From NCBI GenBank assembly GCA_010093605.1, contig MU004187.1, forward strand, positions 67,383-131,382: a stretch of DNA of 64,000 nucleotides, in the 5' to 3' direction. Both the position numbers and the translations under genes were made by a program. Source of the stretch: Lophium mytilinum (taxonomy: Eukaryota > Ascomycota > Dothideomycetes > Mytilinidiales > Mytilinidiaceae). Shown here piece after piece: positions 16,193 to 56,741 of this stretch (position 1 is the first letter of the stretch; each line of letters begins with the position of its first letter). The notes beneath the pieces were generated by a model, which saw only the letters and a list, made by a program, of their open reading frames with translations, was not told where the DNA came from and ran no database searches.

Positions 16193-17488
16193 GGAATGAT
16201 AGTAAGTCTTGTAGTATATCAGAAGGTATTTGGAGTTCCAAGGTTGTCATTGGACCTACCCAGATCATTCCTGTTGGACGTGCTCTGCGATGTTGCTCCC
16301 CATTTCTCCTCATTCAGCCTCACGTCAGCACAGGAGACGGCAAGATTTGATGGAAGTGTGGGTTATGTTTAACACTGTCCTAAGGTGGTGCTGACGATTG
16401 CGATGTCCTACTTTCTCCTAATAGACTTGAGCGGTAAGCGATACCAACACCAACTAACGACTCTCAAAATCGAGGAAGAGGAGTAATATTATGTATCTAT
16501 GAAACGCATCTCGATCATAGGATCCCTACTACACGGAACCCATTGCAAGCAACCTTGACCTAGTTCGCACGTTTTCCCCAGTAATCGAACAGCACCGTCC
16601 AGGTGCATATTCAATTTTCAGGCACGATCGTGCCTACTCATCGGGCACTTCTCGGACTTGTTTGACACTCCACACCAACTCCATGGACTGTCGGGACCGG
16701 CGAAGTTGATCTCCCACGCCCTCTCCTCAAGCTTCTGTGCCATTAAGTTGGTACGACACTGCGCCTCCATTGCGCGAAACGATAGCAGCCTTTTCCTCTT
16801 TCTCACGCCCCAAACCATCGCTCGGGTTACCGTAATGTTTGATGCCCACCAAAGGCCATGACGTATTCTGGTGGATGTGTTGATCCCCAAGCCTCAGCCC
16901 CATACCGCTAGCGCCGTCTTGTCCTTGAAAACCCTCTTGCTGTCCCTCACAGAGAAGAAATCAGTTCGCCTAGGTGGTGGGAAATGGTTTAAACGCCGTT
17001 GAGGGCTGTAGCACGTGGTCGTCAGATGCCCTCACTCAAACACGACCACGAAAAAGGATGCAAGGATAGCACCCTACAGTTGGTACGAGGACTCCACGAG
17101 TAGGAAAGAGGCTGGGTGATTTCTGGTACGCTTTGCGCCGTTTTGGTGGAAGTTCTTATGAATCTACCCGTCTGGAATGAACTTTGATAGACGAGGCGTG
17201 CACGCAGCGTCATACACCTCGTAGCCCAGTTTTGTTGGAAAGAGTTACAGAATCAACCGCGCGAGTCGATTTCTCATAAATACGTCATGCAGGCGGAGGA
17301 GACGTATCGTGGTGGGGTTTAACGGCATAAAGTCAATCATACCTCATCGGTCGAGGACATCCACATGAGAGGAGAAATCAAGGTTCATGATCATCTAGCA
17401 ATATTGAATCAAAGGAAAAGACAATTCAGAGATTTCAATACCTTCTCCCATTCCTACATCCTGCGCCCCATCCCATCCCTAAGAGCCT
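16193..17488. other. Intergenic, no gene seen
   Basis: About 1.3 kb between two convergent genes. Only short frames without motifs occur, and no repeat or RNA gene was recognised. Confidence 0.5.
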
Positions 17489-20400
17489 CTACTTCTTCTC
17501 CTTCTTCACCAACCTGTTGACACTCTTGCCCAGATTCTTCATCCAACCCCCCTTTGAGATCTTCCCTTGCCGACCATCACCAACCGACGCTTCAACCTCA
17601 TAAGGCGGGGGCGCGGTTCCTACACTCCCACTCCCCAATTCATATTCATTCCCATATCCAACATTAGCGTTTCCATTGCCAGTCGATCCCGCATTCGAGT
17701 ACCCCGAATCCATCCTCGAGTGCCGGCCCTCGCTTTCCTGCAGCGCCCTCTTCTCATCCGAATACCCACCCGAGCTTGACACAGGTGCGTAAGGATCCAG
17801 CATGCTCCTTACCTGCTGTACCGGTCTCTTCTCCTCCTTCTCCCCCAGCAACTGATTGCTCACCACTCTGGTCGAGTACCCAGCATACCCCCTGCCACTC
17901 GGTGCCGACAGCGCGCTCGACCGCTCCGGCCCAGAGCTCATCCAATAATTCCTCCCGCGCACACGATACGGCCGCTCACGGTAGGAAGCCGCATACGCCA
18001 TGCCCACAACCTGCGCGACTTTCTTGAGCTGCTGCCCGTAGTGCGGCATGCGGTAGAGCGTCTCGACGAGGCGGTAGACTCCATCTTCGTCCAGAGCCTG
18101 GCGGACGGTAGAGCCAATTTGCTGGCCCGACTCGAGGAGCTTGACGTAGTGCTCGTAGCGATCTTTGTCCTTCTCGAGCGCGTCGAGGCGCGTGCGGCTG
18201 CCTCCGAGGCTGACTTTGCTTCGCTCCTCTTTGATGAGGTGCTCAAAGTACTCGAGGGTCGCGTCGTTGATGCCTCGCGTGATGCTGTTCTTCTTTAAGT
18301 ATACGCGGAACTGCGCCGCCGCCTCCTGGATTTGGGTATGCTCTTGACGGAGCTCAGTGATGTGTTTGGCGAGGACTTTGAGTTGCGCTTCCTTCGCGAC
18401 GGTCTCGTTGCCGTTGACGGTAATTGCTGCAGCGACCGTAGGATCAGTTTCAATCTGGTTCTTCTCGGTGAACTCGACGCGGATGTGCTCGTGTTCGGAC
18501 CAGTGGTGTGAGCATTTCGTACATTTTTCGTTGGAGAAGGCGGCGCAGTGGATGAGCTCGCGCGTGCCGACTTTGTAAGGGGGGACGTTGGTGAGGCAGC
18601 AAGGATTATGGCCTAGCATTAGGTTAGCATACGCATTGGGTATATTAGCTTCTGGAGCAAAGGAAGGGTTACGTACATAGTGACTTGCGAAGTTTGACCG
18701 TTTCCCCATTTGGACCTGAGCGATCCTTAACAGTCACGCAAGAGGCGTGAGCGCAGACAGTCTTAGGCTTGTCTAATTGCTTAGCATCCACTACCGTCTT
18801 GTGAATGTTTAGTTTCGATTGAAGAGCTAGGCCTGTAGCCCTGGTGTTTTTCAGATCGTCCATCTGCTTCTCGTTTTGTGTGACGCTATCAGTGATGGCC
18901 TTTGAGATCTGCTGCATCGGCTTCGTGAGCTGAGAAATGAGGTATCGAGTCTCGTTCAAGCTCAACGTGCTCTTGACTTGGTGCGGGATCAAATTATGAG
19001 TGTATTGTAGAAGCCTGTTTGCTTCTTTCGCAGAATGATCCCAGCTACGCCGGTAGTCGTCCAAGTTGCCGATATCAATACCCTTCTTCCGCGCGGCGAG
19101 ATATCGGAAGCTTTCAGAGTCGAAGCAGTAGACATTATCTCGGTATAGCCCTTTGATGACGTCCTTGTATTCGTCTAGCAGTTTCTCGAGGGGATTGAAA
19201 GTATCTCCTGGTTGGTAGTTTGACCCGCGAGTGTTCGTGAAACCGAAGATCATGTTCTGGGCGGCGTTTCTGTGGAGATGCGTCAACAGCTCTTTAACGC
19301 AGAACCGGAACAGTACGTTCAAACGCGAATTGTTCGGCTTCAAGAGGATGAGGATGCCATGGAGCTGGTCGTAGTTTCGCAAAACTGAAAGAACGTTGAC
19401 CATGTTCTTCCTGTCCTGCTCGATGCCACGAACATCCCCGATTCCGGGTGTATCGATCAACCGTACCAGAGTACCACCGATATAGAGAGGATAGACCGTC
19501 GCTTTCTGAGTAGCCGAATCTCCAGACATACCATCCGCTTCGTCTTCGTCTGCACCAATCTTGACCCGATGTTGAAGTAGTCTGCCCGTCTGCTCGTCGA
19601 CGCTCTGTGTTGCGAAAGAGCAAGGAATGATCCAATTCAGCTTCTCCGCCGACATACCCTCGTCGAGCGAAGAAAAAGTGAGGTAGTTGACAAAGGCATT
19701 GATGAACGTAGACTTGCCAACGCCCGTCTCGCCAAGAATGAGAATATTCAGCTCTCGCGGATTCGGTAGACTCTCCAGAGCGCTCATCAATCGGCGGCTC
19801 GTATACCTTGCAAAGTTAGGTCCGTGACCTTGGCCTTGACATCTGAAGGAAACCCTATCATAGGGAGTGCGTCCACAGTCGCAATACATGAACCGATCGA
19901 CGGTACCGTACTCGACAGGTACGTGACATTTCCAGCAGATCCATTCAAGAACGTGCTGAGAACTGCATTTCTCACCCGGACATGGGAGCTTGACACCTTT
20001 CCTCGAGGCCGGTACATGAATAATAGAGGAATCCAGATATGCGTCATCATAACGCATCAGACTTTTGTCGGAGAGATACTTCTGTTGTTCGAGAACGTCC
20101 TTCGCAGTCATGCTTGTGCCCTGGAACTTTGATATGCGTGCCTTGTCGAGGTCTTCGCCCGTGGCGTCGCAGTCGACCACTATGTCGAGCGAGCCTGGCT
20201 GCGCATTACTCAGAATTCTCGAGAATAGCTTGACATTAGCTTCCCAAGACTCCTGTTTCCTCATCGCTCCACTGTTGAAGTAGAAAACGTATGAGTACCC
20301 TCGGCTGTTCCGACGTAGGAGGTCGTTAAGAGGTTGTCCGCTGTGTCCGACATACTTGGCACCACCGTCGATCATCGACGTAATGAGCTTGAGTTTCTCG

Positions 20401-21551
20401 CTGTAGTCGCCCATCATTGCGGTCAGTTTCGCCGGTGCACATGGTCCGTTAAAGAGATCTTGGAGCAGCTGCTGTGGCTCCCCGGCCTCGGCCTTACCCG
20501 ATCTTACCGCTCTGATAATGCGTGCGTAGCTAGACTTGAGATATGATTCTGCTTCTTTGGCTTCATTCAATTTGTCAAAGACTTCCATGACATGTTCCGC
20601 TGAATCGTATTCTCGATGAAGCTTGAGGTTGTGGTAGTATTCGTTCAAGATTTGTAAGGAGTTGCGGAGTTCGTCCATCAACTCGACGAACTTTTTCTGA
20701 GTATCTGTGTCAAGTTGTCCTACCGAACCTTGGGTGAGTACTGGGATCCCTAAGAGGACGAGGAAACTGATGGGGAGTAGCGTGTAAAAGAGAGGTTGTC
20801 CTTTCCCATCTTCAGTGAGAGTTTGAACCAGTCTAGGAAGACGCAAAATATGGCCATGCGCACTGTCGACTCCCGCTGGAGGAGTTTCCTCGTAATCCAA
20901 CATATCTGAGTGAACTTTGATCTCAAACGAATCGTTTATGCTCATCAAGGCCTTGTACCTTGCCGGTTCGGCGTAATCAGAGCTTTCGTCCTCTTCGAAC
21001 TTCTTGAACGCTTGCTCCAGGCTTTTCTCTATTTCGATTCGATTCTCATCGCTTGAGATTTGGCGAGTCGCAGTGACGACGCTCTGTGAGCCCCAAGTGA
21101 TACCAGTGACGATATGAGTCGCGGAAGTAGAGCTGAGGGTGTCAAAGTCCAGGGCTTCTCTCGCGTCGTTGCTAGCAAGATTCAGAGTTTCTTGCTTAGT
21201 ACTTAGGGTGTAGTAGAATGCCCGATGTACCGTGGGGAAAGTACCACGCTTCTGTAGGACATATCGGCCTGACTTTTCGGGAGCAACCAGACCTGCCAGG
21301 ACGCTAGCGCCAAGCTCCGGGCCGATGTCCATTCTACTGAACTTCTCTTTGAGGGTGTCGTTGTTGCTGGAAGTCATATCGATCTTACTGACGTCCGCAC
21401 TGTTGACCGCTGATTGGGGTAGCGGTCCTCTGACTAGTGACTGAGGGAGGAAACAGTCGTTTTTGGCATCATACAGTGCTCCCAACGCAGCGCTTGAGCC
21501 CAACGCTGGTCTCTTAAGTGTCGGTGAAGACATGCTGGATAAAGCCCTCAA
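17489..21551 (-). CDS. SNTX-like domain fused to AIG1-type GTPase
   Basis: Two exons (18677..21551 and 17489..18612, 64-nt intron with GTACGT donor) give 1332 aa, or 1326 from the second Met. Residues about 20-190 (LGALYDAKNDCFLPQSLV ... ATHIVTGITWGSQSVV) resemble the MACPF/CDC-like N-domain of SNTX-family proteins. A helical middle and a region around 420-510 follow, then a cysteine cluster (C524, C529, C539, C542, C557, C559, C571). The GTPase has a P-loop GETGVGKS at 607-614 and Walker B/G3 IDTPGIGD at about 699-706, then KELLTHLHRNAAQNMIFGFT. The splice joins KLRKSLC to HNPCCLTNVPPY and a C/H cluster (CTKCSHHWSEHEH). The C-terminus is Ser/Gly-rich and ends very basic (NRLVKKEKK). The GTPase part belongs to a known fungal family of unknown role. 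The SNTX match is by pattern only. It is probably a cytosolic or membrane-associated recognition protein. Confidence 0.85.
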
Positions 21552-23542
21552 TCAAAGCAATAAGTTTGCTGTTCGCGAGGCTGAGATATCTGAAGTCGGT
21601 ATGCGAGGTTGAAGCAAGGCCTTGAAGGTGTGCACTAATAACAAGATGTTGATCTGAACCGAGGGATGTGGAATGAGGTAGTGTGAAGAAAGAGGATGAC
21701 CGCAGTCAACAATTCATGGAGGAATGAACAAGGGCCCTCGCAAAGGAGGAGAGGGGTACCGGAGATATAGACGGCGGCCTCAAGTGACAAGGCTGAAGAC
21801 CTCAAGGCAGACTTCCGCCCAGCCGGTCTAGATACAACAGCGCCATCATGCAACCCATCAAGGCCCCGGCCAACAATAAGCGATAAGAAATGGCAGGCTG
21901 AGGTATGGTTCCCATTTTCGAGGCTTGCACTGCGGTGGCTCAAAGAGAGCAAGTAAAGACTAGCGTAGTTCAGCCTTGCGATCAGATGAACGAGATTGGT
22001 AGAAAGTGTTACGGCGACTACCCCGGCGCCAAGTCTAGACTCCAAGGTTGAGTGTTGTTGCAGAACGCATATACGTGGGGGTACTGATTGGATGCATCCT
22101 CAGCCAACGAAGCCTGACCTCGAGCAAGGGTACAGATCTTGGGTTCTTCTTGGCCGTATAGGTGACCTGCTCTACACTATCTTGGCGATGTTTTCGCCAT
22201 TCGAAGTACCGTTATTACCGTTCAACGTAATGCGCGTGACTCGAGAAACGTGGTCGAACTCCTTGCGGTTGTCCTCGGCGACGCTTGCCAAGAGGCCTTT
22301 GTACATCCCCAGCATCATCGTTCCCCAGTTCCAAGGCTGAAAAGGCGCCGAAGACGCAATGGCTGTTGTAATACGAATGCTGCCGCATCGAAGGGGGGCG
22401 CGCTGCTTGATGATATGTCTCCAATTGGTGATGGTATTGAGCTGCGAGTGAAACCCTAAGAGGCGCTGCGCGACGTAGCCTGAGACAGCGAAGTCGGTGC
22501 GATGTGATTGGCTAGTCTTACTCCATGGTTCCTTGCACTTCAACATGTTTCCTTCACATCAAGGCTCAGATCTCTTGGGGTTGAGACTCCTTGGAGACTA
22601 TTGTAAACTTTTAAGCAAATTCGAGCTTTGTGCGAGAACAAGACTCCACCTTAATTCTACTGGTTAGGGTACCAATGAATTTACCTTTTCTCCTCACAAC
22701 GTGATAGTACGATATTGGCCATCATGACTCCTTATGTCTTCCGCCCTTCAACTCTATTGCTCTTTGACGACGTGTTTTTCGATGCTCCTTTCTAGCCTCT
22801 GTACCTTTAACCAGCAAACTCCACCAGAACATGAACCAAATATTTTTCAAGAAGCAAAGGTGATGTCAAGTTTCAAGCATCGCAGATTAGACTGCCTCTT
22901 GAATACTCGGCTGCTTCGCAGCCAGGCTACCCCCTACAGTGGTGTCAGGTGAGCAAAATCGAAGTCAAGCAGTGACAGATCTGTGTGCCCAGACATATGG
23001 CTTAGTCCTGTAAACCACTCTTTCTGACTCTTTAGATTCGCCTAGTATCAGGTCACTACAGCCTATCAGCTCTAAGGAATCTACGACAGCGAGTCTGAAG
23101 AAGATGTCTCCACCAGCGGAGGCTACAGTTACAGATGAGACGTGTGATGATCTCGTGACGTCGAGATTTGACGGTCGAAGCAACGGGCAGTAGATGGCTT
23201 ATGGCTCTCCACGTAGCTTTCGGGAATGGGAGAACGTTACTGCCTACAGAGCTGCTTACAACTTTACTTCACCTGCGAACTCCAAGATTTATCAATCGTA
23301 ATTTCTAGGGTGGTGTGTCCTACCAAAGCCCGTCTTCGGCGAGCGGAAAGCTCAGTCTGTCCAAACCATTTGCAAACCCTTAAGCCATCAGAGCTCTGTG
23401 CCTAGTTTTCTGCCACTGTCCGAGGCGCCCGTGTGATGATCCTGCCACCAAAGCTCCACTGGCGTTCGCCTTTTGACACGCCAAACGCCACGCTCATGCA
23501 ACCCTTCGTAGAACAAGAAACAATCAGAAATCTCGGTCACCT
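21552..23542. other. Intergenic with one repeat copy
   Basis: About 2 kb without a supported gene. Frames of up to 136 codons exist but show no motif or coding bias I could recognise. A dispersed repeat copy is at 22852-23009. Confidence 0.5.
22852..23009 (-). repeat. Dispersed repeat, inverted copy of 49812-49967
   Basis: This stretch matches the reverse complement of 49812-49967 over about 157 bases, roughly 85 percent by eye. Long shared blocks include AGATTAGACTGCCTCTTG, AGCCAGGCTACCCCC, AGCAGTGACAGATCTGT and GACATATGGCTTAGTC. No terminal inverted repeats or coding sequence are evident. It looks like a short non-autonomous element. Confidence 0.75.
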
Positions 23543-45189: not shown

Positions 45190-48100
45190 ATGAGCGTACC
45201 GGCCTTCGGAGACTTTGTAAAGTTGATTGAGCTTGCCAATGAGGTCTATCGGCGCTTTATGGATGCGCCAGAACAATTCCAGGCTCTCTCTGATGAGTAA
45301 GTACTCCGATTCTACTCTTTCTAGAGCTCATAAACCCGGTACCAGCCTCCTGCGGATCTCATGGCGATCATTACGTTCCCTCGTTACTCCATGGGCTTCC
45401 ATTGTTTTTAATCAGCACCGCTGCCAAAAGAAAATCATCACCAGACACTCATCATTTGAGTAGGGTCAAAGGCCTTGAAGCGGTCCTTGGAAACGTTAAA
45501 AGTATCCTATCCAAACGGGAGCTCACAAGCAAGCAAACGGAGGTTTTGGTAAGCATCTTCGTCGGATGCCAAAATGTTCTCACCCCAATGAACACAAAAT
45601 TGGAGAAGTACCAAGGCATTGAGCCTCATAAGAAAGATAGCGACATTCAAAACATGCGCGTTAAGTTCCGAACGGCGTGGAAGAAAGTGAATTGGGACGC
45701 CAAAGAGGTCCAGGAGCTTCGAGGCCGCCTCACTTCTAACATATCACTATTGAATGTTTTCTACGCAGATCTCAATAGGTAATCTTCCAGCAAGTCCAGA
45801 TAACTTAGGAACTTCGGACTAATGACGGACAGCCAAGCCATCAGCAAAATACACGTCCATCAAGAGAATCAAAACCTCCAAACTGAAACTGCAAAGGCTC
45901 AAGCAAAGCGAAGAGAAATCCTTGACTGGCTCACCTTGCTCACACCAGTTAACTATACTACTCAGCAAGATGATTTCATCCGCCGACGACAAGAACACAC
46001 TGGTGAATGGTTATTGGGGTCGAGCGAGTTCCAGACCTGGTTCCGTAACAAAAACCAAACATTGTTCTGTCCCGGCATTCCAGGAGCGGGAAAGACGATA
46101 ATGACATCAATTGTGGTGGACAATCTCCATTCGAGTCTCAAGAAGGGCGACAACATTGGCATTTCATGTATCTATTGCAATTTCCGGCGACATCATGAGC
46201 AGAAACCCGAAGACTTGCTCTCCAGCATATTGAGACAATTGGTCGAAGGACAACCGGTCATTCCAGACGAAATAGAGATTTTGTATAGTCACCTTAAAGA
46301 CATAAGGGCCCGGCCATCCTTGAAACAGATATTGACGGTTTTGCAAGCCGTGATTCTCACCTTTTCGAAGACTTTCATCATTGTTGACGCCCTTGATGAG
46401 TGTCAAATTTCGGATGGAGGTCGTCAGAAGTTCTTGACCGCATTGTTCAACCTTCAGGTCCAGACGGAATCAAACATCTTTGCAACTTCGCGATATATTC
46501 CGGAGATCACCGCAAGATTTGCGTCCGCCATACGAGTTGAGATTCGAGCAACTGACGAAGATGTACGAAGATACGTTGATGGTCGTCTTCCAGAGCTGCC
46601 ACCGTTTGTATCTCGCAATCCCAACTTGCAGGAGCACGTCAAGTCGGTCTTGGTAGAAGCCGTTGAAGGAATGTATGTGTTTCACCAATCGTCTCATCTG
46701 GCATGACTGAGTAGCCTTGTATAGGTTCCTCCTCGTAGACTTGCATTTCAGCTCGCTGGTCGGAAAGAAATCAGCCAAGGCACTCAAAACAACATTGAAA
46801 ACCCTCCCGAGAGGATCTGATGCATATGATCGATCCTACGACGATATCATGGGGAGAATCAAAGGTCAGGTTGGCGATTACCAGCAACTTGCGATGGAGA
46901 GTCTCTCATGGATAACTAAAACTAAAAGACCTCTAACTGCTACGGAACTCCAGTTTGCTCTTGCTATAGAGATTGGGGAGCCTCGATTTGATGAAGAAAA
47001 TATCCCTGAACTCGAGGATATTATTTCAGTGTGTGCTGGACTTGTCACTGTCGATGAAAAGAGTAGAATCATTCGCCTAGTCCACTACACAACGCAAGAC
47101 TACTTTGAAAGAACGTGGAAGACCTGGTTTCCTGACGCACATACTTTGATTACGAACGCTCTGGTGACCTACATATCTATGGATGCTCGTCATGGCCTTG
47201 AATCGATTTTTTGGCACTTTTCGCATTCGAGACCGCTTTTTGATTTAGAGCTCTATCCTTACGCGCTCAAGTACTGGGGAAAGCATGCCAGACTAGCATT
47301 AGAAAGCAAACTTGACCCTGCCTCAACTTGGGAAGAAGTAAAAGAGCCGATATTGAATTTCCTACAAAAGGAAAAGTCGCTGAAAGCCGCAAGTAGATTC
47401 GCGGCGGTCCAATCTGAATCCACAGGCCGCCACGCGAGATTCAGGATTGGGATACTGTTTGCAGCATACTTCGGACTGGAGCACGCAGTGACAACTCTCT
47501 TTGAACTAGGACAAGACATCACTGTTGTTGACGATACAGGGAGAACGCCACTGTACTACGCGGCAAGAAACGGTCACCACATCGTAGTGGATTACTTGAT
47601 TAAGACAGGCGTCGATCTGAGTCGCCAGCGCTGTGACGAAGCACTGTCGACAGCAGCAGTGAACGGACACCCATTGGTTGTAGCTTTATTGCTTGCGAGT
47701 GATGAGGTCGACGTAAACATTCGAGTTCATGATTCCTACGGCGTGACCGTAACTCCCCTTTCTGGGGCGGCAAGGGCGGGACATTTGGCGGTGGTAAATC
47801 TATTTCTGGCTGACCAAAGAGTTGACGTAAATGCACGAGATTCCAAAGGCCGGACGCCACTAGCCATTGCATCGAGGATGGGGCACTTGGCAATGGTCAA
47901 ATTGTTTCTTGCTGAACAAAGAGTAGACGTCAACTCCTTTGAACAGTTCGATATTACGCCATTGGGAGCGGCAGTACAGGAAGGCGGGGAAGCTGTAGTG
48001 AATCAGTTGCTCGCTGATCCAAGAGTCAACCAAAATGCACATCCTAGGGGATCTATGAAGGAGGCAATTCCTCTGGTGGAAGCCATCGCAATCGGTGATG

Positions 48101-49134
48101 AAGCAATAGTGAAAAGGCTACTTGCTGATGGTAGATGCGCCATAAATGGTTTCGGGTACGGAGGAAAAACACCCCTCGAAATGGCAGTAGAGAATGGGAA
48201 CGTGGCATTAGTACAGCTATTGCTCGCCAACAAAAGAATTAACGTAAATGGAGCTGGGACCCACACTGCACTGGGAGCAGCAGTATATCACAGCCGTGAG
48301 GCAACGGTCAAGCTGTTCCTTACGGACCCTCGGGTTGACGTGAACGCTGCTTGTATTGGCAGCTCAACGCCACTGGGATTAGCCGCAGAATCTGGCAATG
48401 AGAACATCGCAGAGCTGTTGCTTGCCGATCCAAGGATTGAAGTAAATGCCCTGGATTTGGATGGATGTACACCACTACACAAGGCGGCAGAACGAGGACA
48501 GGGCCATATTATGAAGCTCTTACTCGAGGTAGACAGCATAGATGTGAATGTTGCTGATTCAAGTGGACAGACAGCTCTAGGGATAGCTGCAAGGACGGGT
48601 TACCAAAAAGCAGTGAAGCTCTTGCTCGCTAAAGCTGAAATAGACGTAAATGCGGTCGATTTGAACGGACGGACACCATTAGCATTGGCAGCAACCTCTC
48701 CATGGCGCGCACTTGAGTTCGAAAGGCCAGACGCAGGCGAGGCAGTAGTCAAACTGTTGCTTACAGATGAAAGAGTTCAGGTGAACGCCTTCGATTCAGC
48801 AGGGCAAACCCCACTGGGAATAGGGTTACGTAGAGGCACCGAGGAAGTGGTGAAGTTATTGCTTGCTGATGAGAGAGTGGATGTGAATGCGGTAGACTCG
48901 GAAGGACGTAGTCCCTTGACTTTGGCGACGTCAGTCCCATGGCTGGAACAGGAGAAGGAGGTGGTCATGGAGCGCTGGGGCTACTACCCGAACGAGCAAG
49001 ACGATCGCGAAGTGGAGCTCAAGAGACGCGAAGGGCGGGAGGCTGTGATCAAACTCTTGTCTGAAGACGACAGAGTAATTGACAAGCAACGTAGCAGCCA
49101 ACTTGTGCAAGGTGGAAACGATGTCAAGGACTAA
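45190..49134 (+). CDS. NLR-like NACHT ankyrin-repeat protein
   Basis: Four exons, 45190..45296, 45464..45778, 45833..46672 and 46725..49134, join in frame to 1223 aa. Residues 1-140 are a helical domain typical of fungal NLR N-termini (PAFGDFVKLIELANEVYRRF ...). The NACHT follows: P-loop GIPGAGKT at 222-229, Walker B IIVDALDEC at about 323-331, and a conserved helix around LRQLVEGQP. A winged-helix region precedes a VHYTTQDYFE motif. From about 665 to 1205 there are some 15 ankyrin repeats of the form G-x-T-P-L ... V-x-L-L-L-A-D-x-R-V-D-V-N-A. Such proteins sense ligands and trigger heterokaryon incompatibility or defence-like cell death. The repeats are diverged, not near-identical. The effector domain and partner are unknown. 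Confidence 0.94.
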
Positions 49135-53294: not shown

Positions 53295-56200
53295 ATGGGA
53301 TATCCGCCGCAAGCTAACCACGGCTTGTCTGCTGGCTCATACAACCAATATCCTTCTGTTCCTCCCCCACCACCGTATCCGCGTAATTGGGGAAGTCAGC
53401 CTCCAAAGCAGGCTCCGCCCTTACCGCCTAGGCCTTTACCTCCACCATTGCCGCCTCGGTCTCCTCAGCCTCCGAAGTATGGGCCGTCTCCGGTTCATAA
53501 TATTCCTGCTGTTCAAGACGTGACTGCAAGAATCCAAAGGCTCAACACCAATGATTCGTTCTATTCCTACCCAGACCCTCCAAACCCTCCTGGGTCCCAG
53601 TGGAATGCTTCTCAAGTTGGCCTAGCTGCCCAAAGTGGCCATCATTTAGCCCCTTCGTCACAGAATTGGCAGAGTCCAGAACACTCAAATTACCAACATC
53701 AAGTTTCAGGGCAGACGCCTGGAGTCTATCAGCAACCAAACGTCAGTCATGCATCAGCTGACCCACACCAAAATGTCCATTATGGTGCAACCTCACAGCC
53801 TCAAGCCCCTCAGCCGCTAGGGTCTCACATGGTATCAGGTAGTGGTCAATATAGTAGTGACCAACAGTCTCATCAAGGTTATTCAGGGCCACCATCAAAT
53901 CCAAGCTTTGGGTCTGCAAATGCCGGCACAAACTCCTTCCCAGTAGCGAATTACGAGTCTTCACAGCCTACATACCCTCAACAATCTCAAAATGTGCCTT
54001 TGCAACAATATTCGAATTACTCAGGTCAAACCGAGCATTCCGGGGTAGTCTCTTCTGCCTCTGTCAGCTCAGCTCCGACTCAACAATCTCAATACTCGCA
54101 AACTGGATACCACTATCCACCCCCGCCCCCGTCTCCAAATCCGCACCAACAATCCCCTGGCTATCTAGTTTCTCCAACACCTTCACAAGCAACGACACCA
54201 CATCTGTCTGCTCCATCCCCTGTCTATGCTGCCTATAATCCGCAACGTACTTCACATCCTCTTTCTCCCTCATCTCCGATTGGGTTCCAGCAATCTCCCA
54301 CGAACTATTCCGGGTCTCCGAAACCTTTAGTAGAAGCAGTATCTCAAGTTCACAAACAATCCCCGGCTTATGCTGCTTACAACCCCAGTCAGTCGTCTGG
54401 AGACTACAATCAGCCGCCACATACCCTTATATCTCACAATCCATCAGCAGCACTCAAGTCTCAGAATCAGTTTCCACTCTCCTCTACAACTATTCAAAGC
54501 TCAAATGTACCTGTTGAGCTCGATTCGACCCCGGCTGTATCTACCTTTGCGGCGTCTAGCTCACCCGGGTTCTTTGCCGAATTGGAGGCTCCTGGGCCAG
54601 TCGCACGTCAAAGTCCACTCCCAAACCTAGACAGCGATAAGGAGGTTGTGGTATCATTCTCTAGTAAACTTCCTTCTGAGCTCCCGTCTGAGCTCCCGTC
54701 TGGGCTCCCGTCTGAGCTCCCGTCCGAACTTCCTTCCGAACTTCCGTCCGAGCAATCAAACTTTCATCAGTCGAACGAAGCAGGCGCTGGTAAACACCCG
54801 TATCACCCTGACTTGAGGAACACCACTTCGAGGACATCCACCCCTTCGATCCCGACGAATAATCAGCCATATCAGCCACCGTTACGGACGCGGCCTCCTC
54901 GCATGATCACGAATGAATCAGAAATCTATATCCGCATCCTTGATCCACCTCCAAATATTCCAGCCGAACACAGCTCAAACTACTACATGCTCCGCAAGTG
55001 CTCTTATCCTACAGACATCGCATATCCCGCTTTCTGGTTTCGAACATCCTTCGTACCTGATTTCAATGTCTGCACCTACTGTTTCGAAACACATATCCGC
55101 AATTCCCAATTTTCCGAGATGTTTGAGGGCACACTACAGCCGGCTTTCCCCAGTACTAGGTGCAACTTTGGAGTTCCCACGGTGTTGAGGATGATGTGGT
55201 CGTTGGCGCTTAAGACGAATAATTTCGCATCCTTGAAAGCATACATGGAGCGACGGGTTTCACTTCCACGATGCTATGGCTCTCATGGCGTCGTGGGAAG
55301 TACAGCTGGACCGGAAGGGATCAAATGGTACTCTCCACGGAATGACCAAGCATTAGGCTTTGTCGCCTGCGAAGCATGCTACGAAGAACAAGTCAAAGGA
55401 ACATCCTTCGCCTTAAATTTCGAGCGTTGTCCGCGAGCACAAGGTCCAAATGATACCTGGGCGTGCGATCTATCATTCTCATACATGCTGCGGGCTATCA
55501 ATCTGTACAGCATGGCAAACATGTGGCCCTCTTTCATCACCTCTGCTACCCGGCGGGTGACGCTGCCAGAATGTGTAGGCCTCTCGAGCGTGAAAACGGG
55601 CACAAGATCATGGTACACCACTGCAAAACCAATCAAGGGCGCAATTGTCTGCGAAGCGTGTTATCTGGACCATGCCGGGCTTACTGACTTCGAGCGGGAA
55701 TTTGTTTCGTACCCTGTGGACGACACCAACCGCAATCAGGCGTGCAATTGTGACTTATGGCCCTTGCCTTTGAAAGTCAGCATGGAAGTAGCCCGAGATA
55801 CGTATAACTTCTCCATATTTTGGGACACTTTCAACGTCTTCTCCAACAACCCCCCTTGTACGAATGAGGGTATCACAGACGGAACATGGTACACCCTCAA
55901 AGGCGGCTGCCAGAACTTTGATTTATGCATAACCTGCTACACCGGCTGGGTGAGAGCCCTGAAACTTACCCAGCACTTCGAACCACGCGCACCCGCCCCT
56001 CCTGGCACCAATCTCATGTGCGACTTCAACGCCGCCTCCCCTCGCTTCGCGAAATACATCAATAAGTATGCCGAAGCGATCAGCACCCCTAACTTCGCCG
56101 CCTTCTCCAACTACGTCCACCGCGTCGCCGATCTCCCCATTTGCCAGACCACTGATTTCGTCGCCAATCGCCGCTGGTGGATACTGCAGAACCTAGATCC

Positions 56201-56741
56201 GCGCAAGACCGTCCACGTCTGCGAGTCCTGCTACGAAGACGCCATCCGCGGCACCGCCCTCGCACACATTTTAGAGCACACCCCAACCCCTCTCCCACAA
56301 GGCATCATGTGCGAGATGTATTCCGCCAACATGCGCAAGCGATGGATCACGCTTTCAAACTCGAAAACTCCTGACATCGAAGCCTTCGTGGAGTACTGCC
56401 AGCACCGCAACGCCGTCTATACGCAGACAGTGCCGGCTATGAAAGCTATCATCGCTCAAGCCAAACTCCGCTTGCAGCAGCAGACGATCCTGAATGCCAC
56501 GAGCAGTTTCTATAACTCCGCGAACGCAATTTCGGCGGCGTCAGCGCAAATACATTATGGACCGGGTGGGACTACAGGCGGCCATTTGTACGGGAATGGC
56601 GCGTTAGGGTATCACTGGGAGACGCCTTGTGGGGTTCAGGGGGCGGTCGCGGGGCAGCAAGCGATGGGGCTGGTGGCACAGGGGATGGGAGATACGGCGA
56701 GGGTGGGGGTGTTGGAGAGGATGTGGAAGGAGGTGGAGTAG
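53295..56741 (+). CDS. Pro/Gln-rich protein with Cys modules, unknown
   Basis: This is a single exon of 1148 aa. Residues 1 to about 530 are disordered and Pro/Ser/Gln/Tyr-rich (PPPPYPRNWG, PPLPPRPLPPPLPPRSP), with many QSP-Y-AAYNP-like phrases (SPVYAAYNPQ, SPAYAAYNPS). The tetrapeptide array LPSE at about residues 459-486 follows. From about 560 on the protein is folded and carries five modules. Each has an aromatic/Cys unit, W-Y/W ... C-x-x-C-Y ... F ... C: CTYCFETHIR, VACEACYEEQVK, IVCEACYLDHAG, DLCITCYTGWVR, HVCESCYEDAIR. The modules probably bind zinc or form disulfides. No signal peptide is seen, so zinc binding is the better guess. The family is unknown to me. The Pro-rich part suggests a scaffold. 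The C-terminus is Gly-rich. Confidence 0.8.
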   Translation: MGYPPQANHGLSAGSYNQYPSVPPPPPYPRNWGSQPPKQAPPLPPRPLPPPLPPRSPQPPKYGPSPVHNIPAVQDVTARIQRLNTNDSFYSYPDPPNPPGSQWNASQVGLAAQSGHHLAPSSQNWQSPEHSNYQHQVSGQTPGVYQQPNVSHASADPHQNVHYGATSQPQAPQPLGSHMVSGSGQYSSDQQSHQGYSGPPSNPSFGSANAGTNSFPVANYESSQPTYPQQSQNVPLQQYSNYSGQTEHSGVVSSASVSSAPTQQSQYSQTGYHYPPPPPSPNPHQQSPGYLVSPTPSQATTPHLSAPSPVYAAYNPQRTSHPLSPSSPIGFQQSPTNYSGSPKPLVEAVSQVHKQSPAYAAYNPSQSSGDYNQPPHTLISHNPSAALKSQNQFPLSSTTIQSSNVPVELDSTPAVSTFAASSSPGFFAELEAPGPVARQSPLPNLDSDKEVVVSFSSKLPSELPSELPSGLPSELPSELPSELPSEQSNFHQSNEAGAGKHPYHPDLRNTTSRTSTPSIPTNNQPYQPPLRTRPPRMITNESEIYIRILDPPPNIPAEHSSNYYMLRKCSYPTDIAYPAFWFRTSFVPDFNVCTYCFETHIRNSQFSEMFEGTLQPAFPSTRCNFGVPTVLRMMWSLALKTNNFASLKAYMERRVSLPRCYGSHGVVGSTAGPEGIKWYSPRNDQALGFVACEACYEEQVKGTSFALNFERCPRAQGPNDTWACDLSFSYMLRAINLYSMANMWPSFITSATRRVTLPECVGLSSVKTGTRSWYTTAKPIKGAIVCEACYLDHAGLTDFEREFVSYPVDDTNRNQACNCDLWPLPLKVSMEVARDTYNFSIFWDTFNVFSNNPPCTNEGITDGTWYTLKGGCQNFDLCITCYTGWVRALKLTQHFEPRAPAPPGTNLMCDFNAASPRFAKYINKYAEAISTPNFAAFSNYVHRVADLPICQTTDFVANRRWWILQNLDPRKTVHVCESCYEDAIRGTALAHILEHTPTPLPQGIMCEMYSANMRKRWITLSNSKTPDIEAFVEYCQHRNAVYTQTVPAMKAIIAQAKLRLQQQTILNATSSFYNSANAISAASAQIHYGPGGTTGGHLYGNGALGYHWETPCGVQGAVAGQQAMGLVAQGMGDTARVGVLERMWKEVE
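54669..54752 (+). repeat. In-frame 12-bp tandem repeat, seven units
   Basis: Seven 12-base units vary between CTCCCGTCTGAG, CTTCCTTCTGAG and CTTCCGTCCGAG and encode (LPSE/G)7. The array lies inside the protein at 53295 and shows synonymous drift between units, with one unit (CTCCCGTCTGGG) changed to LPSG. Confidence 0.9.

What the first reader, a model, noticed from the sequence alone, without database searches (positions are those of the whole stretch)
17489..21551. SNTX-like N-domain fused to an AIG1-type GTPase
The N-terminus of this 1332-aa protein carries the phrases LGALYDAKNDCFLPQSLV, ATHIVTGITWGSQSVV and ATRQISSDEN, with spacing that fits the MACPF/CDC-like domain of SNTX-family proteins. 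It is followed by cysteine clusters, a complete AIG1-type P-loop GTPase (GETGVGKS, IDTPGIGD) and a second Cys/His module. In animals SNTX-type domains form pores or occur in intracellular immune-like proteins, and AIG1 GTPases act in immunity and membranes. A single fungal protein carrying both could be a nucleotide-gated membrane-acting recognition protein. The fungal GTPase family is known, but its role is not.
Basis: partly seen in the sequence, partly recalled or inferred. Interest (0 to 1): 0.75.

Follow-up and report, generated by a model that had tools for sequence, protein, structure and literature searches.

The report
Fungal stonefish-toxin-like domain fused to GTPase
A fungal gene joins the pore-protein fold of stonefish toxin to a GTP-binding switch; each half belongs to a known kind, we found no study of the combination, and one key residue suggests it may not make pores.

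Summary
On the minus strand a two-exon gene (ATG 21533, intron 18676-18613, stop at 17489) encodes 1326 aa. Residues 7-256 match Pfam MACPF_SNTX (E 5.8e-22) and the solved stonustoxin chains (E 3.6e-12 and 1.5e-10), aligned from residue 4-5 onward, leaving little room for a signal peptide. Then come an unassigned stretch, DUF7656 (E 1.4e-24), a Cys cluster, a P-loop GTPase, a Cys/His cluster and a cationic amphipathic C-terminus. The 'AIG1-type' label fails: 25.3 bits against a cut-off of 27, and no canonical G4. It is the only MACPF_SNTX and DUF7656 place found in its genome. Against pore formation, the glycine reported as needed for stonustoxin prepores aligns with Ser209. Best reading: a cytosolic, GTP-switched, membrane-associated protein that uses a perforin-like core to assemble, probably not lytic. 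Two single-sequence structure predictions were of low confidence and no homologue was retrieved, so the mechanism is inferred. New member of a kind already in Pfam; ten paper searches found no study of it.

The parts
18677..21533 (-). exon 1 (residues 1-952 and the first base of codon 953)
   Evidence: open frame; first in-frame ATG at 21533
18613..18676 (-). predicted intron, 64 nt
   Evidence: GTACGT ... GCTAAC ... CTAG; the one of two acceptors found that keeps the frame open; no RNA data
17489..18612 (-). exon 2 (to residue 1326 and stop)
20766..21515 (-). MACPF_SNTX domain, residues 7-256
   Evidence: Pfam PF24674 E 5.8e-22; stonustoxin chains 4wvm_B and 4wvm_A by phmmer
20736..20792 (-). 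most hydrophobic 19-residue stretch of the protein, residues 248-266, overlapping the end of the MACPF_SNTX match
   Evidence: Kyte-Doolittle mean 2.27; whether it touches a membrane is not known
20376..20735 (-). unassigned stretch, residues 267-386 (helical by eye only), in the place of the FAT domain of stonustoxin
   Evidence: position only: one phmmer alignment runs 5-397 against 4-388 of 4wvm_A; the region alone finds no stonustoxin and no Pfam family over its cut-off
20079..20375 (-). DUF7656, residues 387-485, in the place of the thioredoxin-like domain of stonustoxin
   Evidence: Pfam PF24676 E 1.4e-24; fold prediction of low confidence
19824..19982 (-). Cys cluster, residues 518-570, putative zinc module (inferred from spacing)
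   Evidence: C518 C523 H527 C533 C536 H537 C551 C553 C565 H570; no Pfam match
19164..19754 (-). P-loop GTPase domain, about residues 594-790 (outer bound approximate): G1 at 601 (19710-19733), G3 at 694 (19434-19454), FTNTRG at 765 (19224-19241) where a G4 might be
   Evidence: MMR_HSR1 31.9 bits over cut-off 21.9; AIG1 25.3 under 27; Septin 21.3 under 26.2; motifs
18485..18755 (-). Cys/His cluster, residues 927-995, split by the predicted intron
   Evidence: C927 H929 C932 C953 H954 C957 C958 H974 C975 C983 C986 H988 H989 H993 H995
17555..17929 (-). Ser/Gly-rich stretch, residues 1181-1305, probably disordered (inferred from composition)
   Evidence: 20 Ser and 19 Gly of 125 residues
17492..17545 (-). 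possible cationic amphipathic C-terminal helix, residues 1309-1326
   Evidence: helical moment 0.686, reached by 9 of 20000 shuffles of the same residues (window chosen as the best of five in the last 22 residues, not corrected for) and by 2 of the protein's 1309 windows, itself included

Best explanation
The gene encodes a cytosolic fungal GTP-binding protein. Its N-terminus is the perforin-like core of the stonustoxin branch of the MACPF/CDC superfamily. An unassigned segment and DUF7656 follow where stonustoxin has its FAT and thioredoxin-like domains, and in place of the C-terminal PRYSPRY domain stands a GTPase between two Cys clusters, with a possible cationic amphipathic helix at the very end. 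Most likely the tail helix and the core dock on an internal membrane, the GTPase controls assembly, and the cores join edge to edge into homo-oligomers without inserting into the membrane. Shown: the open frame; the MACPF_SNTX, DUF7656 and P-loop GTPase matches; an N-terminus collinear with stonustoxin; one place found in the genome. Inferred: splicing, cytosolic location, zinc binding, membrane docking, GTP control, homo-oligomers, lack of lysis.
For: Domain matches. Alignments start at residue 4 (beta) or 5 (alpha) of this protein and residue 4 of the toxin chains, so little precedes the core. At the stonustoxin interface the alpha chain carries K54 and K205 and the beta chain E55 and E206 (PMC8704401, passages); here strand 1 has Asp52 and strand 4 Lys206, opposite charges in one chain, as a homo-oligomer would need. 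The glycine reported as needed for prepore formation (G208/G209) aligns with Ser209 in both alignments; in the CDC perfringolysin O, side chains at a conserved glycine pair trap the prepore (PMC7527733, passages). The C-terminus has a high amphipathic moment. The C-terminal domain of SNTX-like proteins can be absent: Glycera and green-turtle forms lack SPRY (PMC4202326, passages).
Against: Both fold predictions were of low confidence and no homologue was retrieved, so conservation of Asp52, Lys206 and Ser209 is untested. Asp52 faces the stonustoxin charge in phmmer's beta-chain alignment and in a gapless strand alignment that I made by eye; phmmer's alpha-chain alignment puts it two residues off. 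That the stonustoxin glycine is equivalent to the CDC glycine pair is my inference. The stretch after residue 68, which I take for the first membrane-insertion region, is well conserved with stonustoxin, which favours a pore. No canonical G4 was found, so GTP specificity is not assured. The tail helix may bind something other than a membrane.
Confidence: 0.4

Rival explanations
1. Nucleotide-gated pore former: an intracellular sensor or cell-death executor in which GTP binding releases the MACPF-like core to open pores.
For: Homology to a pore-forming family; the stretch after residue 68, taken for the first membrane-insertion region, is well conserved with stonustoxin; a hydrophobic stretch at 248-266; a NACHT-ankyrin gene, of a kind that I recall as often tied to fungal incompatibility, lies about 24 kb away.
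Against: Ser209 in place of the glycine reported as needed for prepores; one place found in the genome and no repeats of 18 bases or more in 17000-22500, unlike expanding immune families; nearness to the NACHT gene may be chance.
Confidence: 0.2
2. Septin- or dynamin-like trafficking or scaffold GTPase in which the MACPF-like fold only serves protein contacts, with no membrane role.
For: The best, weak matches of the GTPase among solved structures are septins (E 0.01), and it resembles septin, AIG1 and dynamin profiles weakly, each under its cut-off; one place found in the genome; several neighbours are housekeeping genes.
Against: The amphipathic tail suggests a membrane; the domain is under the septin cut-off.
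Confidence: 0.3
3. Secreted toxin against competitors or hosts, as stonustoxin is in venom.
For: Homology to venom proteins that also lack signal peptides (PMC4202326, passages).
Against: Little room for a signal peptide, a GTPase and Cys clusters suited to the cytosol (inference), no PRYSPRY match in Pfam, Ser209.
Confidence: 0.03
4. Artefact: two neighbouring genes read as one.
For: None found.
Against: One uninterrupted frame of 952 codons carries the MACPF_SNTX, DUF7656, first Cys and GTPase parts.
Confidence: 0.01

Closest known systems
Stonustoxin subunits (PDB 4wvm), SNTX branch of MACPF/CDC
   Same: N-terminal MACPF/CDC-like domain collinear from residue 4-5; no room for a long signal peptide; two further segments follow in places like those of the FAT and thioredoxin-like domains
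   Different: No PRYSPRY match in Pfam; GTPase, Cys clusters and amphipathic tail instead; Ser at the reported prepore glycine; DUF7656 not shown to be thioredoxin-like
Glycera SNTX-like proteins (PMC4202326, passages)
   Same: SNTX-like N-terminus without a SPRY domain; no signal peptide
   Different: No GTPase mentioned in the passages seen; expressed in venom glands
AIG1/GIMAP GTPases (Pfam PF04548)
   Same: P-loop GTPase with G1 and DTPG G3
   Different: Under Pfam's cut-off; no canonical G4; the best weak matches among solved chains are septins
Septins (PF00735)
   Same: Weak similarity around the P-loop; best weak matches among solved structures
   Different: Under the cut-off (21.3 against 26.2), no canonical G4; this genome has separate septins

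Membership tests
MACPF_SNTX (Pfam PF24674) | profile match over curated cut-off | tested here: met
   78.7 bits against 27, residues 7-256 on profile positions 3-270 of 301
MACPF_SNTX (Pfam PF24674) | sequence homology to a solved stonustoxin chain | tested here: met
   E 3.6e-12 and 1.5e-10
MACPF_SNTX (Pfam PF24674) | MACPF/CDC fold with bent central sheet and two helix bundles | not tested
Stonustoxin-type pore former | glycine reported as needed for prepore formation (alpha G208, beta G209) | tested here: not met
   Ser209 aligned to it in both phmmer alignments; role of the glycine from a passage of PMC8704401
Stonustoxin-type pore former | MACPF-FAT-thioredoxin-PRYSPRY order | tested here: inconclusive
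   no PRYSPRY match in Pfam; FAT and thioredoxin places filled by unassigned sequence and DUF7656; Thioredoxin_11 finds nothing in this genome at E 1
Stonustoxin-type pore former | lytic activity | not testable with these tools
   needs purified protein
AIG1/GIMAP (PF04548) | profile match over curated cut-off | tested here: not met
   25.3 bits against 27 for the domain alone, 16.7 in the whole protein; not listed at E 0.01 in the genome scan, where another GTPase scores 24.2 and a true septin 20.7
AIG1/GIMAP (PF04548) | G1-G4, G5/IAN and conserved box (definition from a passage of PMC7053062) | tested here: not met
   G1 and G3 present; no [NTRA]KxD between residues 700 and 860, FTNTRG at 765; G5 and conserved box not assessed
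Septin (PF00735) | profile match over curated cut-off | tested here: not met
   21.3 bits against 26.2; septins elsewhere in this genome reach 242 bits
DUF7656 (PF24676) | profile match over curated cut-off | tested here: met
   87 bits against 27

The most novel reading that the evidence does not exclude
A homo-oligomeric perforin-like machine gated by its own GTPase: fungi would use a stonustoxin-type core inside the cell as a GTP-switched assembly that deforms or opens internal membranes, an intracellular role for a fold best known from venom.
Probability: 0.15. Interest if true: 0.78.

Novelty: new member of a known kind. Interest (0 to 1): 0.42.

Why it matters
Stonustoxin-like domains are studied mainly as venom toxins, yet here the same core sits in a fungal protein with no apparent signal peptide, joined to a GTPase. 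If the core assembles under nucleotide control, it would point to an intracellular use of the fold and give a genetically tractable setting in which to study it. If it is not lytic, it would show what the fold does apart from making pores.

Tried and rejected
Homologue search. Viral contigs: protein queries gave no confirmed relative (no pattern match, 7 pattern matches, none confirmed) and two DNA patterns gave no match. Prokaryote contigs: 28 pattern matches for exon 1, none confirmed; with a single protein this search reaches close relatives only. A degenerate pattern for the LG.LYD motif hit one prokaryote contig, L004; it lies in a 51-residue frame and the genome behind it has no MACPF_SNTX match, so I count it as chance. 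None of 299 genomes of that phylum matched; no control genome rang, so these do not prove absence. Fungal genomes other than the window's own are not held, so the survey of domain order and strain copy number was not done.

AlphaFold on single sequences: GTPase pLDDT 36.3, DUF7656 49.0. No fold search was run on either. I had hoped to show that DUF7656 is the thioredoxin-like domain of stonustoxin; residues 241-500 find no stonustoxin by phmmer at E 10 and Thioredoxin_11 finds nothing in this genome, so this stays a guess from position.

The AIG1 label was tested and dropped. NCBIfam gave nothing over a cut-off. Classic MACPF (PF01823) finds nothing in this genome at E 0.01.

Papers. Ten searches listed no paper that I could recognise, from its title and the start of its abstract, as a study of a fungal SNTX-GTPase protein. 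The library is open-licence PMC only and Ellisdon 2015 is not held. I saw passages, not whole texts, of PMC8704401, PMC10566576, PMC7593815, PMC7053062, PMC4202326, PMC4986456, PMC11238149, PMC7527733 and PMC8262678.

I then mended: the residue at which the alignments start, 'helical' for residues 267-386, the Cys/His lists, the bounds of the Ser/Gly stretch, the controls on the tail helix and on AIG1, and the description of the neighbours.

Full report
What is there. The gene lies on the minus strand at 21533-17489. A frame of 952 codons is joined by a predicted 64-nt intron with fungal-looking signals (GTACGT donor, GCTAAC, CTAG acceptor) to a second exon, giving 1326 residues. Shuffling the bases of the region 200 times gave a longest open frame of 282 codons.

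Domains. Pfam gives MACPF_SNTX at residues 7-256 (78.7 bits, E 5.8e-22) and DUF7656 at 387-485 (87 bits, E 1.4e-24), both well over their cut-offs of 27. Phmmer against solved structures finds the two stonustoxin chains first (E 3.6e-12 and 1.5e-10). The alignments start at residue 4 or 5 of the window protein and residue 4 of the toxin chains, so little precedes the core. Stonustoxin is ordered MACPF/CDC 1-265, FAT 266-385, thioredoxin-like 386-517, PRYSPRY 518-703 (PMC8704401, passages). The window protein has unassigned sequence and then DUF7656 at almost the same positions (267-386, 387-485). This is an argument from position: that region alone finds no stonustoxin, Thioredoxin_11 finds nothing in this genome, and the fold prediction was of low confidence (pLDDT 49.0).

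The GTPase. G1 (GETGVGKS, 601) and G3 (DTPGIGD, 694) are clear, and the MMR_HSR1 profile passes its cut-off (31.9 against 21.9 bits). AIG1 does not: 25.3 bits for the domain alone and 16.7 in the whole protein against 27. As a control, AIG1 scanned over the whole genome lists two other places at 24.2 and 20.7 bits and not this one (E up to 0.01); the second is a septin (242 bits with the septin profile), so scores in the low twenties carry little meaning. The first is a separate coiled-coil GTPase (21.6 bits by hmmscan) that shares with the window GTPase a weak match from the P-loop to G3 (26 of 104 identical, E 3e-4 for a single comparison). No canonical G4 lies between residues 700 and 860; FTNTRG stands at 765. 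Septins are the best weak matches among solved chains (E 0.01) but the septin profile is under its cut-off too (21.3 against 26.2). I call it an unassigned P-loop GTPase of the wider septin/AIG1 kind; that grouping is a judgement, not a test.

Other parts. Cys clusters at 518-570 and 927-995 have no Pfam family over its cut-off and look like zinc modules by spacing. The last 18 residues could form a cationic amphipathic helix (moment 0.686; 9 of 20000 shuffles reach it; 2 of 1309 windows of the protein, itself included; chosen as the best of five windows). The most hydrophobic 19 residues are 248-266, at the end of the MACPF-like domain (mean 2.27). No repeats of 18 bases or more were found in 17000-22500.

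Does it make pores? Three points bear on this. First, in stonustoxin G208 (alpha) and G209 (beta) are reported as necessary for prepore formation (PMC8704401, passages); both alignments place Ser209 there. In perfringolysin O, a CDC, side chains at a conserved glycine pair trap the prepore (PMC7527733, passages); that the two sites are equivalent is my inference. Second, the stonustoxin subunits meet through strand 4 of one and strand 1 of the next, with K54 and K205 in alpha and E55 and E206 in beta. Here Lys206 aligns with the strand-4 charge in both alignments, and Asp52 with the strand-1 charge in the beta alignment, though phmmer's alpha alignment is shifted by two residues. Opposite charges in one chain suit a homo-oligomer. 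Third, the stretch after residue 68, which I take for the first membrane-insertion region, is well conserved with stonustoxin, which speaks for the pore reading. On balance I favour an oligomerising, membrane-associated, probably non-lytic protein (0.4) over a scaffold GTPase without membrane role (0.3) and a GTP-gated pore (0.2).

Distribution. The genome (43.18 Mb, 24 contigs) shows one MACPF_SNTX place and one DUF7656 place, both in this gene (counts are lower bounds), no further match to exon 1 at E 0.001, and no classic MACPF. Searches of viral contigs and of prokaryote contigs gave no confirmed relative; none of 299 genomes of one bacterial phylum matched (no control rang). Other fungal genomes were not available, so spread and strain variation in fungi are untested. 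That Pfam holds a family for the middle domain suggests that relatives are known to databases.

Surroundings. Of 26 further open frames of the window scanned with Pfam, 7 had no match; the others include ribosomal L27, a CoA-transferase, TFIIF beta, bystin, Brix, RrnaAD and Xrn1 parts, and a NACHT-ankyrin gene.

Novelty. From memory, not from a call: Ellisdon and colleagues (2015, not held) described SNTX-like MACPF proteins as spread through eukaryotes, and fungal proteins named after an AIG1-type G domain exist in databases. Ten paper searches (listed under Tried and rejected) showed no study of such a fungal protein. I class it as a new member of a known kind, moderately interesting because the function of the kind is open.

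Noticed in passing
45822-49134 (+): A STAND/NLR-type gene: NACHT (NPHP3_N, E 1.9e-33), winged helix and ankyrin repeats; two frames join through a predicted 52-nt intron (46673-46724) into 1086 residues.
   Followed up: partly
L005 592-2076 (-), genome place C12:288698-289129: A separate coiled-coil-looking P-loop GTPase with a hydrophobic stretch near its C-terminus, weakly AIG1-like (21.6 bits, under cut-off), in the same genome.
   Followed up: partly
53295-56741 (+): A 1148-residue open frame with a Pro/Gln/Ser-rich first half, a 12-base tandem repeat (54675-54753) and a second half with many Cys, without a Pfam match at E 1e-4.
   Followed up: no
1010-63854: Of 26 further open frames scanned with Pfam, 7 had no match; the rest include ribosomal L27 and S17, CoA-transferase, TFIIF beta, a RING/CCCH protein, bystin, Brix, UPF0029/RWD, RrnaAD, Xrn1 domains, GMC oxidoreductase, redoxin, a short-chain dehydrogenase and an F-box protein.
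   Followed up: partly
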